Positions 11,238 through 25,820 of a stretch of DNA of 64,000 nt are shown piece by piece; within the stretch, counting starts at the first letter, position 1; each line of letters starts with the position of its first letter. The notes below the pieces were generated by a model. The model had not been told where the DNA came from and did not search any database. It saw only the letters and a program-made list of their open reading frames with translations. The stretch spans positions 1-64,000 of the forward strand of contig JAJECN010000031.1 in assembly GCA_022821965.1 (NCBI GenBank). The letters run 5' to 3'. Position numbers and translations under genes: made by a program. This DNA comes from Candidatus Poribacteria bacterium (GTDB lineage: Bacteria > Poribacteria > WGA-4E > WGA-3G).

Positions 11238-12539
11238 TCAACTACCCAAGCCTAAAGACTTGGGCTTGTCGCCAAACAACGTGAGTTGTGTTGCATTCTG
11301 CAAGTCCAAATCTCGTGCTTCGTTGGTGTTTCTCGTTTCAGTGAGGGTGGTAACCCACCGCTCTCCACGAAAGGCAGCAGCTGCCTTAAAAAGTATATTT
11401 CGTGCAGCGTTGTGGTCTCGGTCTAAAGCCGTGCCACAAGACTGACACTTAAAAGTTCGTATCGCCAGCGAAAGTTTCTTTGGCGATTTCTGACCGCAGT
11501 AGGAGCAAGTTTGTGAGGTATTCTTGGGATCGACTTTATGGAAGTGGAAACCGTCTCTTTCGGCTATGTTTCCACACCACGTAAAGAAGGTTGCCCAAGA
11601 CGCATCGGAAATGCTCTTGCTGAGGTGTCTGTTCTTTACCATATTGGATACACCTAAATCTTCTACCACTAAGACATTATTTTCCTTATGATGGTAGAGT
11701 TTGTAGACGAGTTTACCGATAAAGTCTTTACGCCTGTTGGCAGTTCGCTCATGGTGTAGGGTAAGTTTGTGTTGTTGTTTCTTTCTACGGTTAGAACCTA
11801 ACTTTTTACGCGATAGGTCTTTAGAGTGTTTTCGGAGGAGTCCTTCAGCTTGACGATACCAGCGCGGGTTATTTTCCTTTTCACCTTCGGAAGTCGTCAA
11901 ATAGTGCGTTGTGCCAACGTCAACAGCGATCGCATCTGTCGGTTCAACTTTCGGGGTATCGGGGAGTTCACAGGTAATATGAACATACCACCCCGACGCT
12001 TTTTTCACGAGCGACACTTCTTTCGGATCGCCTTGCAGCGGGCGGTGCATGTAGATTTTGACTTCGCCAAGTTTCGGCACTTTCAAGCGGTCATGTTTCC
12101 ATGCTGTTTCTCGGATCGGGTTTTCGCGGACGCGTATCGTCTGTTTATCAGTCTCTTTTGTCTTTTTCCGAACGACTTTGGTATATTTGCGGAGACTCCA
12201 AGTCAGAGAACGCACACGCTTTTTGTAGCGAGGATACCCTTTTTTCGCAGCTCCGTTCTTACAACGCCTGCGAAAATTCGTGAATGCCTTATCGTTTCTC
12301 CGTAGGGCGTGGTTCTGAAAATCTTGTGGCACTTCTCGGAAATCGTCATACTTCTCACGCGCGGCTCTTAGGAGGTGCTGCTGGTCATTTAGGGAAACAA
12401 AAGCACCTTCCGTCTCATACGCAACAAGCCTATCGTGGCGCGCAGAGTTCTGAAGGTCGCAAAGATGGTCAAACCAGTGTAGTAATGTTGTCTCCTGTGT
12501 ACGCGTCGGATACACAGGATATTTGAAAGTCAATCTCAT
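11238..12539 (-). CDS. tnpB: TnpB, RNA-guided RuvC-like nuclease of an IS605-type element
   Basis: The 433-residue protein has an N-terminal helix-turn-helix-like region (FKYPVYPTRTQETTL), then a RuvC-like nuclease. Catalytic residues appear intact: D207 in AIAVDVGTTHYL, E293 in LVVEDLGVSNM and D375 in LDRDHNAARNI. A zinc ribbon has Cys pairs at 345/348 (CSYC) and 365/368 (CQSC). TnpB proteins are known to cut DNA using an RNA from the element's 3' end, which here should span the end of the gene and the 11245-11264 hairpin. Translation begins at ATG 12537-12539, just downstream of a structured leader. Confidence 0.93.
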   Translation of the reverse strand: MRLTFKYPVYPTRTQETTLLHWFDHLCDLQNSARHDRLVAYETEGAFVSLNDQQHLLRAAREKYDDFREVPQDFQNHALRRNDKAFTNFRRRCKNGAAKKGYPRYKKRVRSLTWSLRKYTKVVRKKTKETDKQTIRVRENPIRETAWKHDRLKVPKLGEVKIYMHRPLQGDPKEVSLVKKASGWYVHITCELPDTPKVEPTDAIAVDVGTTHYLTTSEGEKENNPRWYRQAEGLLRKHSKDLSRKKLGSNRRKKQQHKLTLHHERTANRRKDFIGKLVYKLYHHKENNVLVVEDLGVSNMVKNRHLSKSISDASWATFFTWCGNIAERDGFHFHKVDPKNTSQTCSYCGQKSPKKLSLAIRTFKCQSCGTALDRDHNAARNILFKAAAAFRGERWVTTLTETRNTNEARDLDLQNATQLTLFGDKPKSLGLGS

Positions 12540-14615: not shown

Positions 14616-15173
14616 ATGAAATGCTTAGTTTCGCTCATTGCTCTGATTACTCTACTCGGTTGTGGAAGCGATTCAAACCTTATAACGCCCGATCCCGCAA
14701 TGGATATGGAACAACCCGCTGAAAGAAATGAGTCACCGGTCGTGGAGGCTCTACCAGTGCCTCCTGATGTCGTCGCCGAAATACTCAATCAGGACCCACC
14801 AATAATACGCGTCTTAGACCCCGACGCTATCGCCCAAATACTCAATCAGGATCCACCAGTGCCCCCGGATGTCGTCGCTGAAATACTCAATCAGGACCCA
14901 CCAATAATACACGTTTTAGACCCTGACGCTATCGCCCAAATACTCAATCAGGACCCACCAGAGGTGCCAGTATTAGAACCCCCTGAGGTGCCCGATATTA
15001 TTATCGCTGAAGTACTCGAGAATCCGCCAAAGATACACGTCTTAAAACCACCCGAAATTGCCGAGATTGTCATTGAAATCCAGAACAATGAGGACCCACC
15101 AGTGATAATAGTGATAAACCCTCCCGAGCGTATGCCTGAACCACCGAACGGGGATCCGCCGCCTGACGAGTAG
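14616..15173 (+). CDS. Proline-rich repeat lipoprotein
   Basis: The 185-residue protein has a lipoprotein signal (LIALITLLGC). The rest is a low-complexity acidic chain built from recurring units: PPDVVAEILNQDPPI, then VLDPDAIAQILNQDPP, repeated twice almost exactly, followed by degenerate copies (EPPEVPDIIIAEVLENPP, KPPEIAEIVIEIQNNEDPP). Regularly spaced double prolines with I/V-rich intervals suggest an extended, rod-like surface or periplasmic spacer. AAAAAGGAG precedes the ATG. No family is recognised. Two more lipoprotein genes follow on the same strand. Confidence 0.8.
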   Translation: MKCLVSLIALITLLGCGSDSNLITPDPAMDMEQPAERNESPVVEALPVPPDVVAEILNQDPPIIRVLDPDAIAQILNQDPPVPPDVVAEILNQDPPIIHVLDPDAIAQILNQDPPEVPVLEPPEVPDIIIAEVLENPPKIHVLKPPEIAEIVIEIQNNEDPPVIIVINPPERMPEPPNGDPPPDE

Positions 15174-20114: not shown

Positions 20115-20121
20115 ATTTAGA

Positions 20122-20373
20122 ATGCCATTTGGTAGCGAATTTCATCTGTCTCGCTTGAGGCAGTCGCTACATCTGCCGAGTGGAATCGGAATGGCATTTT
20201 CAGGAGTGCCATTTGGTAGCGAATTCCACCTGTCTCGTTTGAGGCAGTCGCTATATCTACCGAGTGGAATCGGAATGGCGTTTTCAAGAATGCCATTTGG
20301 TAGTGAATTCCACCTGTCTCGTTTGAGGCAGTCGCTATATCTACCGAGTGGAATCGGAATGGCGTTTTTATCC
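20122..20373 (+). repeat. Three tandem 84-bp repeats
   Basis: Copies begin at 20122, 20206 and 20290, each opening RTGCCATTTGGTAG and ending near AATGGCRTTTT. Each unit contains inverted segments: TGCCATT/AATGGCA, TAGCGA/TCGCTA, ATTCCAC/GTGGAAT and CTGTCTC/GAGGCAG (with one G-T pair). The unit length is 28 codons, so a reading frame is kept. The copies differ at only a few sites. No spacers are present. Confidence 0.9.
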
Positions 20374-20582: not shown

Positions 20583-21551
20583 TCAGTCGTGGACAGGCTG
20601 CTTCAACCTGCCCCAGAGTGTTGCTCGTGTCTCCGCAGTCGGAGCAACAGATAAAGTACCTGTTGGTACCCATGTCGGACCTATATCTGCCTCTGGATGG
20701 CGTGTCAATCGGCGGCGATTCCCTATGATGCCATTGATATCTGTTCGATAGATGTCAGCAGCTCTCTCCCACCAAGACATGAAAACAATCGTCTGTCCAT
20801 CAGGGGACCAGGCGGGCGACCCCTCACCGTTCCGATGGCGGGTGATCCGTCTGAGATCTGTCCCATCAACGTTTAGGATGCAGATGTCATAACCTCCGAA
20901 AAAAACTGCGCTAAAGGCGATCTGCTTCCCATCCGGAGACCACGCTGGCGTATATGCCTGGTTGGGTTGGTTTTCGAGTCTGCTCTGATTTCCGCCATCC
21001 GCATCCATGATATAGATACCAGACGGGTCCTTGAAAGAACGAAAAGCGATGAATTGACCATCAGGGGACCAAACCGGGGTGTTGTTCTTCTCATCCGCGT
21101 CCGTCAACTGTTGGAGATTCGCACCACTGGGTTCGACTTTGTAGATGTCAAGCGTCCCTGCTCTCTCGGAGGCAAACGCAATCCATCGTCCGTCTGGAGA
21201 CCATGCGGGACTATGGTCACGTCCCGGATGGTTCGTCAACTGGTGGGATACCTTCGTCTTGAGATTCATCACATAAATATCCCAATTGCCACCCGGAGAA
21301 AAAACGTAAGCCATCTGCTGTCCGTCTGGCGAAAACGCTGGAGAAAACTCATCGGCTAAGTGGTCTGTCAACCGTTGGAGATTATTGCCATTTATATCCA
21401 TCATGTAGATATCATAATTTTTCTTCCGCCGTTTGGAACTAAAGGCAATATACGGAACATCGGACGCGTAGACATAAAGGTTCGTCGCCAGCGAGAAATA
21501 CACGAATAGCATTGCAGCTCCCAACACAATATAGGCAAGTTTCCCTTTCAT
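20583..21551 (-). CDS. Secreted TolB-like (PD40) propeller with C-terminal WG-K tail, copy 1
   Basis: ATG 21549-21551 follows GGAGG by 8 bases. A signal peptide (MKGKLAYIVLGAAMLFVYFSLATNLYVYA) leads into about six PD40 blades, each with a pattern such as PAWSPDGRWIAFAS, PVWSPDGQFIAFRS and DIYVMNL. This is the TolB/DPP-like fold; such proteins bind peptides or glycans, but the partner here is unknown. It ends TLSVAPTAETRATLWGRLKQ plus five residues, a tail shared with four other secreted proteins in the window. It is the last of three similar genes on the minus strand. Confidence 0.88.
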   Translation of the reverse strand: MKGKLAYIVLGAAMLFVYFSLATNLYVYASDVPYIAFSSKRRKKNYDIYMMDINGNNLQRLTDHLADEFSPAFSPDGQQMAYVFSPGGNWDIYVMNLKTKVSHQLTNHPGRDHSPAWSPDGRWIAFASERAGTLDIYKVEPSGANLQQLTDADEKNNTPVWSPDGQFIAFRSFKDPSGIYIMDADGGNQSRLENQPNQAYTPAWSPDGKQIAFSAVFFGGYDICILNVDGTDLRRITRHRNGEGSPAWSPDGQTIVFMSWWERAADIYRTDINGIIGNRRRLTRHPEADIGPTWVPTGTLSVAPTAETRATLWGRLKQPVHD

Positions 21552-21638
21552 TTTTATATCCTCCACGTATACCAGTCAGACATAACGAGTTTATGGTGAA
21601 TTATAAAAATAAGTTTACATTTCAATAGGAGCGAGACC

Positions 21639-21710
21639 TACCACCCCCGCTGGCGAGGGTGTTTTTGATAGGGTGTTTTTTCTAGTATCCTCGCCCTCTT
21701 TTGGTGTATA
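21639..21710. repeat. GCTGGCGAGG hairpin repeat, extended loop form
   Basis: GGCGAGG at 21652-21658 pairs with CCTCGCC at 21689-21695 around a 30-base T-rich loop. The same GCTGGCGAGG word heads hairpins at 36237 and 39858. Confidence 0.5.
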
Positions 21711-21783
21711 CATAATTATAGATTTCACCATAGTAATAATAAGGGAGATGGGCTATGTCGTTCTCTGTAGATTCAATCTTCCT

Positions 21784-22869
21784 CTATCGGATGAACTTCA
21801 TTTCGTCGTGGACAGACTGCTTCAACCTACCCCAGAGAGTTGTCTGCTTCTCCGCAGTCGGTGATACTGAGAGAAACCCTTCCGGCACCCATGCAGGAGA
21901 TAAATCCCTCCCTCCAGCCTTCACAAGCGGTTTTCCACGTCCGTTTCCCATCGCATCTATGACATAAATATTAGCATTGCCAAATGTGTTTTCATAAACA
22001 TAGGCAATCCATTTCCCATTAGGCGACCATACAGGCTGGCGAATCTCAGGAAGTCGAATACCATCCTTGTTCCCCAATATAGGCGGTCCCTCGGTGAGTT
22101 GACGAAAGTTTTTACCATCTATGTCAATCACGTACAAGTGCATGCGATCTTCCCTTGGGACAACCATACTGAAGGCAATCTGTTCGCCATCGGGAGACCA
22201 AGCACACTCACTTTGAATTATGCCATCGAGTGCTTGTACTTCTTTATCATTAATTCGCCTTAACCTTTTTCCATCGGCATCCATCACATAGATACCTTTC
22301 CTTTCATCACCCCGATGGTAAGAGACAAAAGCGATCCGTTGGCTGTCTGGTGACCAAGCGGGTCCCACGTTTGTTCCGCGGTCAGTCAACTGCACCAGAT
22401 GTGCACCGTTGATATCTGCTTTGTAGATATGGGTCGTTATTTCAATTTTGACCCCGGGAATAAATTCATGGTTACCAGAAACAAATGCAATCCATTTTCC
22501 ATCAGGAGACCATGCTGGTGTCCATTCTCTCTCGTCAAGGTTTGTGAGTCGCCGATGTTCTCCTGTCCTTGTGTCCAAGACATAAATCTTGTAGGTTCCG
22601 TCTTGATTTGAGGTGTAAGCCAAAAATCGTCCATCAGGCGACCAAGTTAAATCTTTCTCATCTGTCGGATGGTTTGTGAGTAGACGAAGATTCTCGCCAT
22701 TTGTGTCCTGCAGATAAATGTTATAGTCTCCTGTTGTGTTAGATACATAGGAAATGTATTGAGCACCATAAGTCTGAGCGCAAATGTTATTTATGAACAG
22801 TGTGTGGACTAACACCAATGCGACCCCAAACGCGAAATACACCCGTTTATCTGTCATCGCTGATTTCAT
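21784..22869 (-). CDS. Secreted TolB-like (PD40) propeller with C-terminal WG-K tail, copy 2
   Basis: AGGAGGTG lies 7 bases before the ATG, fixing the start. The 361-residue protein has a signal peptide (FAFGVALVLVHTLFINNICAQ), then six or seven blades with LTWSPDGRFLAYTS, PAWSPDGKWIAFVS, CAWSPDGEQIAFSM and PVWSPNGKWIAYVY. The C-terminus FLSVSPTAEKQTTLWGRLKQ followed by SVHDEMKFIR closely matches copy 1, at DNA level too, so a recent duplication is likely. Its function is unknown. Confidence 0.88.
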   Translation of the reverse strand: MKSAMTDKRVYFAFGVALVLVHTLFINNICAQTYGAQYISYVSNTTGDYNIYLQDTNGENLRLLTNHPTDEKDLTWSPDGRFLAYTSNQDGTYKIYVLDTRTGEHRRLTNLDEREWTPAWSPDGKWIAFVSGNHEFIPGVKIEITTHIYKADINGAHLVQLTDRGTNVGPAWSPDSQRIAFVSYHRGDERKGIYVMDADGKRLRRINDKEVQALDGIIQSECAWSPDGEQIAFSMVVPREDRMHLYVIDIDGKNFRQLTEGPPILGNKDGIRLPEIRQPVWSPNGKWIAYVYENTFGNANIYVIDAMGNGRGKPLVKAGGRDLSPAWVPEGFLSVSPTAEKQTTLWGRLKQSVHDEMKFIR

Positions 22870-23032
22870 TTCTGTTCACCTCCTCTCTTTCCAAGCGAGA
22901 AACTATTTCACCAAGGAACGGAAGATTCCACGCCGGAAATGTCTGGAAACCATTTTTATTTCAGTGGGAAGGCGTATGTTGTTCGGATAACATCTCTGTC
23001 AAAGCAATTTCAAAATGATTATATCTCAACCG

Positions 23033-24046
23033 CTATCTCTTTTTGACTTCTCCCCACGTTGTCGTTAGTAACTCTGGTTGTGGTACAACTGGCAACGCAT
23101 ACACTGGGTCAAACCAATCCCCGCCAGAATTCCATGAAATATGTGTCAATTGCGTCCGAACCCCACTCCTTACGTCAACTTTGAAGATCTGATCCCGTTC
23201 CTTAATTTCTTGAGTATAAAGGACTTCTTCTCCATCTGGTGATAACTCGGGCCTCCTTGCCATAGGACCTGCCTCATCAACAAGTTGTTGGAGACCGGTG
23301 CCATCGCGGTTGACAATATAAATTGTTCGCTTATCAGCCCATCCCTCTGGTAGCCCATCTTCCTGCTTTAAATCTGGCGGCAATGGGTTGTTATTCCAAG
23401 CAAATGTAAGTTTGCCACCGGATACCGACCAAGAGGGCATCAGTTGACCCCCTAATTCTTTTCTCGGCAGGATCCGTTTTTGCGCACCCGTGCGAACATC
23501 AATGAGTGTGATTTTGCCATCTTCAAGCGGAGTATAAGCTATTTCCGCCCCGTCGGGCGACCATGCTGGATACCTACCATTCGCCAAGAAATTCTCTTCT
23601 TGTTCTTCTAAGTTCGTAATGTGGATGGCGTATATATCTTTATCCCAGTTGATGCGCGTGTAAGCGATCTGTTTACCATCGGGCGACCAGGTCGGATCAT
23701 CTCGAAGAGTGAAACTTCTCTTCCGTTCTTTCTCGAAATAGCGTCGGATATTGGATCCATCAGGGTTCATCAGATACAGGTCTCGCTTACCGTCGCGATC
23801 GGAGATGAACAGAATCTGTTCACCTGTTGGAGACCAAACGGCGTTCAGATCGTTTCCGGGATGGTCTGTAAGTCTTATCTGTTCAGAGCCATCTGGGTTC
23901 ATGATGTAAATTTCACGGTTACCATCACGAGAAGAGGTGAACAGGATTTTCGGCGTTGTCGGTGCCTTCGCGAAAACCGGAAAGACATCTACATGCAGAA
24001 TCAACAAATTGAATGAGAAAAGAACTAACAATCTTATTATTCTCAT
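23033..24046 (-). CDS. Secreted TolB-like (PD40) propeller with C-terminal WG-K tail, copy 3
   Basis: GGAGGG stands 8 bases before the ATG. The 337-residue product has a signal peptide (LLVLFSFNLLILHVDVFPVFA) and blades such as LFTSSRDGNREIYIMNPDGS, AVWSPTGEQILFIS, PTWSPDGKQIAYTR and PAWSPDGAEIAYTP, ending LPVVPQPELLTTTWGEVKKR. It is more diverged than copies 1 and 2. The three genes are colinear but separated by 160-230 bases, and may be transcribed separately. Confidence 0.88.
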   Translation of the reverse strand: MRIIRLLVLFSFNLLILHVDVFPVFAKAPTTPKILFTSSRDGNREIYIMNPDGSEQIRLTDHPGNDLNAVWSPTGEQILFISDRDGKRDLYLMNPDGSNIRRYFEKERKRSFTLRDDPTWSPDGKQIAYTRINWDKDIYAIHITNLEEQEENFLANGRYPAWSPDGAEIAYTPLEDGKITLIDVRTGAQKRILPRKELGGQLMPSWSVSGGKLTFAWNNNPLPPDLKQEDGLPEGWADKRTIYIVNRDGTGLQQLVDEAGPMARRPELSPDGEEVLYTQEIKERDQIFKVDVRSGVRTQLTHISWNSGGDWFDPVYALPVVPQPELLTTTWGEVKKR

Positions 24047-24178
24047 AAAACTTCCCTCCTAAGACCATCTTGCCATTTGAATGATAACTTCTAAATCAGC
24101 ATCCTCTTCAAATATTTGACATCCTCTCCCAGCTAAAGCAAGGGAGATTGCTTTGTTCCTTATAGGACAATTCTCTGG

Positions 24179-25339
24179 TTACCCAGAGCGACTTAGATGC
24201 CAATGGAATTTGACTCCTAAGGGGGCTGCCAGTTCCCCGACTACAGGGTAGAATAAATACCCTGATACTTTTGACCATAGATTGATAGCACCAACACCAT
24301 CGCGGTGGTATTTGAAACCGCAATGAGTGCAGGTATAATTTCGATTTGTAGGTTTCTTTCGGTTCGCACATTTCGGACAGGTCTGTGAAGTATACGCTTC
24401 AGATTCAAAAATCACGCAGATACCTGCCATCTCTGCCTTGTAGCAGATTTTCTGTGCTATCCGAGAGAATGCCCATTGGTGAATCTTCTGATTAGACTTT
24501 TTGGAAAACTTGGCACGATCCCGAATGCCTTTGAGGTCTCCAATCACAATCGTATCCGTCTTCGCCTTTTCGCAGTCGGATATAAAGCGTGTTGTGATTT
24601 TGTGTTCAGCATCCTTGAGTTGTGCGTTGATTTTGTCCAATGTTTTGCGTTTTGCTTTAAGAAGTTTATACCAGCGTTTTGATCGTTTCTCGCATCTATC
24701 CATTTTTTCTTGGAAACGGGCATTAACTTTGTTTCGGTATTGGATAATAGACCGAATGAAACGCCCATTATAGATGATAGTTTTTGCGCCATCGTGAGAG
24801 ACAATCGGATGTATTTCACCCATATCCACCGCAACGGCAATACCTGTCTCTTTTTTTCGAGGCACGTCTTTTTTGTCAACAATTGCAAAATAGTAGCAAC
24901 CGCGGCGAAAATACATCTCTACATAGCGAGGTTTTGTTTCTATTTCTTCTATTTCTAATACAATCGGAGCGCGTCCACGTCCATTAGAGAGTATCAGTTT
25001 TCCGTTTTTGTAGCGAATCGCTGTTGATTTCCAACGCACTTTGAAATGTTTTGGGGTTCGCTTTGGTGGCTTCGCATCGGGATTGAACCTGCGAACCTGA
25101 AAATAGGAATCCAACGCATTAAAATAAGAGTCCACACATGCTTGGATACTTTGAGAATGCAGCGCATACCCGCGGTGCCGTAGATATTTTTGGACATCGT
25201 TTTTCGATAGCCAAAATCCTTTTTTCGCATGTGTTTTTCTCACAAGCGAAACGGTTTTAGAGTAGCAACGCCCCGACTCACAGGCAAGGGAGTCTAAAAA
25301 CTCAGTTCTATGATGTTTTATCGTTGTTGTGGTATACAT
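24179..25339 (-). CDS. tnpB: TnpB family nuclease with altered RuvC-II motif
   Basis: The 386-residue IS605 OrfB-family protein has D172 in AVAVDMGEIHP, a zinc ribbon with Cys 321/324 (CPKC) and 337/340 (CTHC), and D347 in YHRDGVGAINL. At the second RuvC motif, where element 1 has VVED, it reads TIVIGDLKGI, so glycine replaces the usual Glu. E312 or E314 in FESEAYTSQTCPKC, just before the zinc ribbon, might supply the missing acid; rearranged active sites are known in some TnpB groups. It may be active through such a rearrangement, or inactive. AAAGGA precedes the ATG at 25337-25339. Confidence 0.88.
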   Translation of the reverse strand: MYTTTTIKHHRTEFLDSLACESGRCYSKTVSLVRKTHAKKGFWLSKNDVQKYLRHRGYALHSQSIQACVDSYFNALDSYFQVRRFNPDAKPPKRTPKHFKVRWKSTAIRYKNGKLILSNGRGRAPIVLEIEEIETKPRYVEMYFRRGCYYFAIVDKKDVPRKKETGIAVAVDMGEIHPIVSHDGAKTIIYNGRFIRSIIQYRNKVNARFQEKMDRCEKRSKRWYKLLKAKRKTLDKINAQLKDAEHKITTRFISDCEKAKTDTIVIGDLKGIRDRAKFSKKSNQKIHQWAFSRIAQKICYKAEMAGICVIFESEAYTSQTCPKCANRKKPTNRNYTCTHCGFKYHRDGVGAINLWSKVSGYLFYPVVGELAAPLGVKFHWHLSRSG

Positions 25340-25350
25340 CGTTTTCCTTT

Positions 25351-25421
25351 ACATCGTGACACCGCTACGAAACGGAGCAGTGGCACTCCCAAGCGGGAGG
25401 TCGTATCCACTGCCACGATGT
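25351..25421 (-). promoter_or_regulatory. Structured leader upstream of tnpB 2
   Basis: The outer stem is 25351-25358 with 25414-25421 (ACATCGTG / CACGATGT). The next is 25377-25383 with 25407-25413 (GCAGTGG / CCACTGC). The apical stem is 25386-25390 with 25395-25399 (CTCCC / GGGAG) around AAGC. TACGA near 25366 pairs with TCGTA at 25401-25405, crossing the second stem. The architecture, loop and crossing pair repeat those at 12551-12630, though the stem bases differ. Confidence 0.7.
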
Positions 25422-25820
25422 ATAATGAGTATACCACCATTCACAACCAAAGTCAAGTGTTTTTTCTATATCACGCTTTGGTCTAATGCACCAGGGCGGG
25501 CATTCATCCCCCCACTAAAGCACGGGGCTTTCTGCCCGAAAATCTGGTAAAACTGGTGCAAAGTTCTTGGAAAACCAAACATTTTTCTTCCAACCTTTTT
25601 GTTTCTTGTGATCATGCCCTTAAAATTAAAGACACAATACATGCAGACAAAGGGTGCAAAATTTGGAGAAAATATGCAGCCTCAATTACATTAAACATGC
25701 CCGCGCCTATTTCGCTGCGCGGCGCAATCGAACGATTCAAAGACGGAAAGCACTAACTTTACGTTCCTGCCACACGCAGCCCACCTAAAAAGGCAGAAAA
25801 CCTAACCTATCCTCTAAGAA

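What the first reader, a model, noticed from the sequence alone, without database searches (positions are those of the whole stretch)
24179..25339. TnpB with glycine in place of the RuvC-II glutamate
Where TnpB 1 has V-V-E-D-L, TnpB 2 has V-I-G-D-L, while the other two RuvC acids and the zinc ribbon are intact. Some TnpB and Cas12-like proteins are known to place this acid elsewhere. E312/E314 before CPKC is a candidate. If so the protein is an active, rearranged nuclease; if not it may be a nuclease-dead repressor-like TnpB.
Basis: partly seen in the sequence, partly recalled or inferred. Interest (0 to 1): 0.5.

Follow-up and report, generated by a model that had tools for sequence, protein, structure and literature searches.

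The report
TnpB nuclease with relocated catalytic glutamate
This is a transposon-carried RNA-guided DNA-cutting enzyme (TnpB) whose third catalytic acid sits at a different, already described place in the chain, so it is most likely an ordinary active member of a known enzyme subgroup rather than a dead or new one.

Summary
In detail: the 386-aa TnpB at 24179-25339 (-) has Gly267 where the window's other TnpB has Glu293, with D172, D347 and zinc ribbon intact. E314 lies six residues before CPKC, the published 'Ealt' position of one TnpB group and of Fanzors (PMC10711439). Of 97 distinct TnpB cores, all 70 with Gly at RuvC-II have Glu there; the 26 without it carry Glu at RuvC-II; one broken copy has both. 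Position 312 is Glu in 9 of 71. In an AlphaFold2 model E314 follows the strand before the zinc ribbon, as the Fanzor Glu does (PMC11423790). The gene sits in an intact IS200/IS605-type element, 24116-25546, inserted after TTAC; two related genomes hold the empty site and the right-end hairpin arms covary. dN/dS is 0.13-0.23. It is a new member of a known kind. Distances and cleavage could not be tested.

The parts
24116..25546 (-). IS200/IS605-type element, 1431 bp, carrying only tnpB
   Evidence: Similarity to related copies stops near both ends; empty sites in G074 and G078 bring 25547 next to 24115
25547..25550 (-). TTAC directly upstream of the left end: target site and presumed TAM
   Evidence: TTAC at 6 of the 8 distinct Ealt elements whose left end was located (score over 60); role as TAM is inferred
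25495..25546 (-). left end with GCCCCGTGCTTTAGTGGGG-type hairpin
24179..25339 (-). tnpB, 386 aa, Ealt-type RNA-guided nuclease
   Evidence: PF07282, PF01385; NF040570 180 bits against cut-off 100
24824..24826 (-). codon of RuvC-I D172
24539..24541 (-). codon of G267, the canonical RuvC-II Glu position
24404..24406 (-). codon of E312, not conserved
24398..24400 (-). codon of E314, the relocated catalytic Glu (Ealt)
   Evidence: pattern of PMC10711439
24320..24379 (-). zinc ribbon CPKC-x12-CTHC (C321-C340)
24299..24301 (-). codon of RuvC-III D347
24116..24300 (-). inferred omega-RNA scaffold (3' end of tnpB plus right end); 5' limit not determined
   Evidence: fold z-score only -1.46; inference from other IS605 TnpBs
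24125..24147 (-). right-end hairpin TCTCCC-TTGCTTTAGCT-GGGAGA, followed by GGATGTCAA
   Evidence: 13 distinct right ends, arms differ but pair
24100..24115 (-). inferred guide: first 16 nt outside the right end, ATATTTGAAGAGGATG
   Evidence: guide role and length inferred
11238..12539 (-). TnpB 1, canonical Glu (VVEDL), used as comparison

Best explanation
The protein is an active RNA-guided TnpB endonuclease of the Ealt (relocated-glutamate) class, carried by a solo-tnpB IS200/IS605-type element in a Poribacteria genome. D172, E314 and D347 hold the two metal ions; G267 is the vacated canonical site. The 3' part of the tnpB transcript and the right end form the omega-RNA, whose guide is the flanking DNA from 24115 onward. 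It would cut the empty site (TTAC followed by the guide sequence) and spare its own copy, in which the element parts TTAC from that sequence. Shown: sequence facts, conservation, element ends, empty sites, hairpin covariation, purifying selection. Inferred: catalysis, metal binding, guide and TAM roles.
For: E314 fits the published pattern D{P}G-x(120-160)-E-x6-CxxC-x(12-18)-CxxC-x(4-8)-D, with spacings 139, 6, 12 and 6. E314 is kept in 36 of the 36 related loci that cover it. In 97 distinct cores all 70 with Gly at RuvC-II have Glu at -7; the 26 lacking Glu at -7 have ETL or EDL 51-53 residues before the first Cys. The Ealt and Ecan rows lie on two sides of one branch. The model puts D172 at the end of strand 168-172, E314 right after strand 308-313 and D347 at the start of helix 346-359, as in the published description of the triad and SpuFz1 D383/E541/D606 with two Mg ions (PMC11423790). 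Solved TnpB 8h1j (Z 19.6, rmsd 7.2, 329 aligned) and Fanzor2 9b0l (Z 17.7, rmsd 6.4, 351 aligned) match over model residues 1-360 and 1-363. Clean empty sites, right-end arms that covary, dN/dS 0.13-0.23.
Against: No distance was measured: no coordinates were available, pTM is 0.60, and residues 271-286 and 361-386 are below pLDDT 50. The split between Ealt and Ecan has weak branch support (46) and long branches that meet. Related loci were found by similarity, so they share ancestry and are not independent tests. The omega-RNA fold is not unusually stable (z -1.46). The element carries no TnpA and the genome shows one copy, so current mobility is unknown. One empty site has TTGC, not TTAC. 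No activity data for this protein.
Confidence: 0.88

Rival explanations
1. A nuclease-dead TnpB, kept as an RNA-guided DNA-binding repressor (TldR-like), which lost its RuvC-II glutamate.
For: The canonical Glu is absent; single copy in the genome, no TnpA beside it; [quoted passage not shown]
Against: D172 and D347 are kept and E314 is Glu in 36 of 36 covering loci; the same Gly/Glu pair is found in 70 of 97 distinct cores, and the copies have different flanks; intact mobile-element ends and empty sites do not look like a domesticated gene at a fixed locus.
Confidence: 0.07
2. An active nuclease that uses E312 rather than E314.
For: E312 is present in this protein and lies two residues away.
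Against: That position is Glu in only 9 of 71 Ealt proteins, and Ile, Val or Gln in 54; E312 falls inside the predicted strand 308-313 rather than after it; the published pattern asks for six residues before CxxC, which is E314.
Confidence: 0.03
3. A decaying element: the protein is of this class but is no longer used in this genome. (This overlaps with the best explanation, which concerns the protein's class and mechanism, so the odds do not add to one.)
For: One copy only; broken relatives exist, e.g. L018 and L028, each with one in-frame stop.
Against: The reading frame is whole and all motifs are intact; dN/dS against the 12 of 17 relatives where it could be computed is 0.13-0.23, though this averages over family history.
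Confidence: 0.1

Closest known systems
Ealt TnpBs with D-Phi-G RuvC-I (PMC10711439; passages, section 23)
   Same: Hydrophobic-residue DxG (here DMG), Glu six residues before the first CxxC, no Glu at the canonical RuvC-II place
   Different: No difference in the features tested; the host is a Poribacteria genome, and a search for TnpB plus Poribacteria in the held open-licence papers gave 0 papers
Fanzors (SpuFz1, mimivirus Fanzor2 9b0l)
   Same: Relocated Glu before the zinc domain; same overall fold (9b0l Z 17.7, rmsd 6.4, 351 aligned)
   Different: Fanzors are near exclusively DPG at RuvC-I and eukaryotic or viral; here DMG, bacterial, IS605-type ends
ISDra2 TnpB (8h1j, 8bf8, 8exa)
   Same: Fold (8h1j Z 19.6, rmsd 7.2, 329 aligned), RuvC plus zinc ribbon, IS200/IS605-type element
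   Different: ISDra2 TnpB is of the canonical-Glu type (recalled, not tested here)
TldR, nuclease-dead TnpB repressors
   Same: TnpB ancestry
   Different: TldRs lack an active RuvC site (recalled); here a full D-E-D set is present

Membership tests
TnpB (IS200/IS605 RNA-guided nuclease) | Match to curated TnpB family models | tested here: met
   NF040570 180 bits (cut-off 100), PF07282 70.3 (26.3), PF01385 48.2 (30.5)
TnpB (IS200/IS605 RNA-guided nuclease) | Carried in an element with IS605-type subterminal hairpins and no target duplication | tested here: met
   Left- and right-end hairpins, empty sites in two genomes
TnpB (IS200/IS605 RNA-guided nuclease) | Guide-RNA-dependent DNA cleavage | not testable with these tools
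   needs protein
Ealt TnpB clade | Glu six residues before first zinc CxxC, within the spacing pattern of PMC10711439 | tested here: met
   E314-x6-C321; spacings 139/6/12/6
Ealt TnpB clade | No Glu at canonical RuvC-II place | tested here: met
   G267
Ealt TnpB clade | Groups apart from Ecan TnpBs in a tree | tested here: inconclusive
   One change separates 71 Ealt from 26 Ecan rows, but branch support is 46 and long branches meet; quick method, no Ealt references from the paper included
pro-Fanzor / Fanzor | DPG at RuvC-I together with Ealt | tested here: not met
   DMG at 172-174
TldR (nuclease-dead TnpB) | Loss of RuvC catalytic residues | tested here: not met
   D172, E314, D347 present and conserved

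The most novel reading that the evidence does not exclude
The relocated-glutamate lineage is a large IS200/IS605-borne family in Poribacteria whose kin in Dehalococcoidia (L039, L040) also have DPG, the Fanzor fingerprint, and in L039 sit beside a Y1 TnpA. [quoted passage not shown]
Probability: 0.12. Interest if true: 0.5.

Novelty: new member of a known kind. Interest (0 to 1): 0.2.

Why it matters
It settles on sequence grounds which acid replaces the missing one and shows, with a reciprocal Gly/Glu distribution, that absence of the RuvC-II glutamate in such TnpBs should not be read as loss of nuclease activity. Practically, it adds a compact (386 aa) candidate with a defined element and a presumed TAM and guide, from a phylum for which the search found no TnpB paper. 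Comparing Ecan and Ealt enzymes of one genome could test the published suggestion that the relocated Glu lowers collateral single-strand cutting (PMC10711439, and 61 passages).

Tried and rejected
E312 as catalytic acid: rejected for lack of conservation. Nuclease-dead repressor: rejected, see rivals. Rfam: no family reached its gathering score anywhere in the window. The single-sequence RNA fold of the last 185 nt was not significant. The MAFFT alignment of the right ends was out of register at the stem, so I compared arms by script instead of using it for pair counts; that script picks, for each element, the best-pairing 5' arm among ten places, which raises the within-element figure somewhat. 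sought right ends with a pattern that itself holds ATGTCAA; that the ends share it rests, where they were located by alignment. In one search MAFFT placed the canonical-Glu motif about five columns off the Gly motif, and the D347 column there was set wrongly, so D347 rests and the canonical Glu. The expression also flagged ten Ealt proteins as having Glu at RuvC-II: nine are an artefact (the E of ETIVIGD or ETIVLGD, before the Gly; the aligned column shows Gly), the tenth is L018. PADLOC lists Cas12f and other Cas12 models; I take this as common fold. I made no dedicated search for CRISPR arrays; the tandem-repeat run lists nothing between 20368 and 54884. Viral contigs: a scan with the single protein confirmed no relative; one with the alignment found four distant loci. 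Paper search (all four terms) gave nothing. A PNAS 2023 census of TnpB, which I recall as describing rearranged catalytic sites, and a second Fanzor paper are not held. Passages of PMC10432273 did not speak of the relocated Glu.

Rows dropped before counts: of 130 loci considered (L058-L081 left out beforehand, being flank, TnpA or empty-site loci), 19 had no open frame of 220 aa or more with a zinc motif and a DxG and were dropped, and 14 of the 111 left were identical to or contained in another core. Since the filter asks for a zinc motif, the zinc ribbon of the 97 is not an independent result. The 40 loci are part of the matches listed, picked for length and coverage; the loci are the tool's best matches. 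So the counts test linkage of the two positions and do not give frequencies.

Full report
Observation. The frame 24179-25339 on the minus strand encodes 386 aa. A script confirms D172, G267 in VIGDL, E312, E314, CPKC from 321, and D347. It is a TnpB by curated models: NF040570 180 bits against a cut-off of 100, PF07282 and PF01385 over theirs. The comparison TnpB of the window is 11238-12539 (-), with VVEDL; BLASTP aligns its E293 with G267 and its P338 with E314.

Which acid. [quoted passage not shown] passages, section 23 in full). Its search pattern fits this protein at every spacing: D172-M-G, 139 residues, E314, six residues, CPKC, 12 residues, CTHC, six residues, D347. E312 does not fit it.

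Conservation. Relatives came from 84 genomes of the phylum, own included, of which 53 have a match at 1e-10, some of them only to canonical TnpBs, and from GTDB contigs: 8 loci, six titled Poribacteria and two Dehalococcoidia. Of the 37 loci L006-L042, 36 reach the site: E314 is Glu in 36 of 36, position 267 is Gly in 35 of 36, and position 312 varies. The one exception, L018, is a broken copy with Glu at both places. On a wider set of 97 distinct cores (130 loci considered, 111 with a usable frame), 70 have Gly at RuvC-II and Glu at -7, one has both Glu (L018), and 26 have no Glu at -7; all 26 have ETL or EDL 51-53 residues before the first Cys. Position -9, that of E312, is Glu in 9 of 71. 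All 71 Ealt cores keep the zinc motif and the following Asp, the zinc motif having been a condition of entry. In this genome PF07282 has 15 matches: this protein, 13 of the canonical type, and one 41-aa fragment that I could not class. A quick tree with the motif columns removed needs one change between the two types, but with branch support 46 and long branches.

Structure. D172 ends strand 168-172, G267 lies in strand 263-268, E312 lies in strand 308-313, E314 follows it directly, and D347 is the second residue of helix 346-359. The Fanzor structure paper places the catalytic Glu on the loop between the fifth strand and the zinc (TNB) domain, and reports D383, E541 and D606 of SpuFz1 around two Mg ions (PMC11423790, passages, section 7). 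That paper describes this pattern for Fz, TnpB and Cas12a together, so it does not itself separate Ealt from Ecan; the separation rests on PMC10711439. The model matches Cas12f (best Z 21.7), ISDra2 TnpB and mimivirus Fanzor2 with large rmsd of 6-7 A; fold matches do not tell Ealt from Ecan.

The element. Similarity to closely related copies runs from about 24113-24117 to 25550-25551. Two genomes of the same genus, G074 and G078, hold the locus without the element: matches to the two flanks abut in G074 and are two bases apart in G078, and the joined flanks align across the junction. The insert is thus 24116-25546, 1431 bp, without target duplication, between TTAC and ATATTTG (G078 reads TTGC). 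Of eight distinct Ealt elements whose left end was located (score over 60), TTAC precedes six; L006 and L034 differ. Thirteen distinct right ends located by alignment end in ATGTCAA followed by unlike sequence. Their six-base stem arms pair 5.85 of 6 within an element against 4.5 of 6 between elements, with 10 different 5' arms and 8 different 3' arms, which argues for selection on the RNA or single-strand DNA hairpin; the within figure is somewhat raised by the choice of the best 5' arm. No TnpA lies in the element; four Y1 transposase matches lie elsewhere in the genome, so it would be moved in trans (inference). In this assembly (95% complete) no exact copy of TTAC plus guide was found; the nearest with TTAC is a two-mismatch site on C23.

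Selection. Nei-Gojobori dN/dS of the window gene is 0.13-0.23 against the 12 of 17 relatives where it could be computed; five were saturated, and the two most distant of the twelve have dS over 2. This is what a protein in use would show, although it averages over the whole family history.

Mechanism. Shown: three acids with relocated Glu, intact ends, clean insertion, covarying hairpin. Inferred from the TnpB literature: the omega-RNA is cut from the 3' end of the transcript, its guide is the flank beginning at 24115, and the complex cuts restored empty sites carrying TTAC, which favours retention of the element; its own copy is spared because the guide-matching flank is preceded by TCAA, not TTAC (sequence).

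Comparison and verdict. In the tested sequence features this is an Ealt, D-Phi-G TnpB. It fails the DPG test, so it is not a pro-Fanzor or Fanzor, and it does not show the loss expected of a dead TnpB. The finding is sound but already explained: new member of a known kind. [quoted passage not shown] I did not place this pair on a tree with Fanzors.

Noticed in passing
L039:2110-3690; L040:2501-3643 (Dehalococcoidia contigs): Ealt TnpB with DPG at RuvC-I, the Fanzor fingerprint (both loci); in L039 it overlaps a Y1 TnpA (PF01797, 140.8 bits) and ends in an IS605-type right end with GTCAA. Published work ties DPG plus Ealt to cyanobacteria and IS607 TnpA.
   Followed up: partly
L018:1095-2241: Broken relative with Glu at both the canonical and the relocated place (MEDL and SEAYTS); may be an intermediate or simple decay.
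   Followed up: partly
L050:1742-1810 and L002 near 1691: Canonical-Glu TnpBs of the same genome end in a similar right-end hairpin and GTCAA as the Ealt element, so both types may be moved by the same transposase.
   Followed up: partly
window 20583-24046: Three adjacent genes for repeat (TolB-like by eye, not searched) proteins downstream of the element; G000 alone has 16 DNA matches to 23400-24115, an amplified family in the genus.
   Followed up: no
window 20119-20368 and 14746-14961: Short tandem arrays: three copies of 84 bp (93% matches) and two of 102 bp (92% matches).
   Followed up: no
L082, L083 (IMG/VR contigs): Distant Ealt TnpBs on contigs classed as viral, with Gly at RuvC-II and Glu at -7.
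   Followed up: no
L014, L015, L030, L042: In these relatives the Asp after the Gly (D268) is Lys (VIGKL where seen), so that acid is not strictly kept.
   Followed up: no
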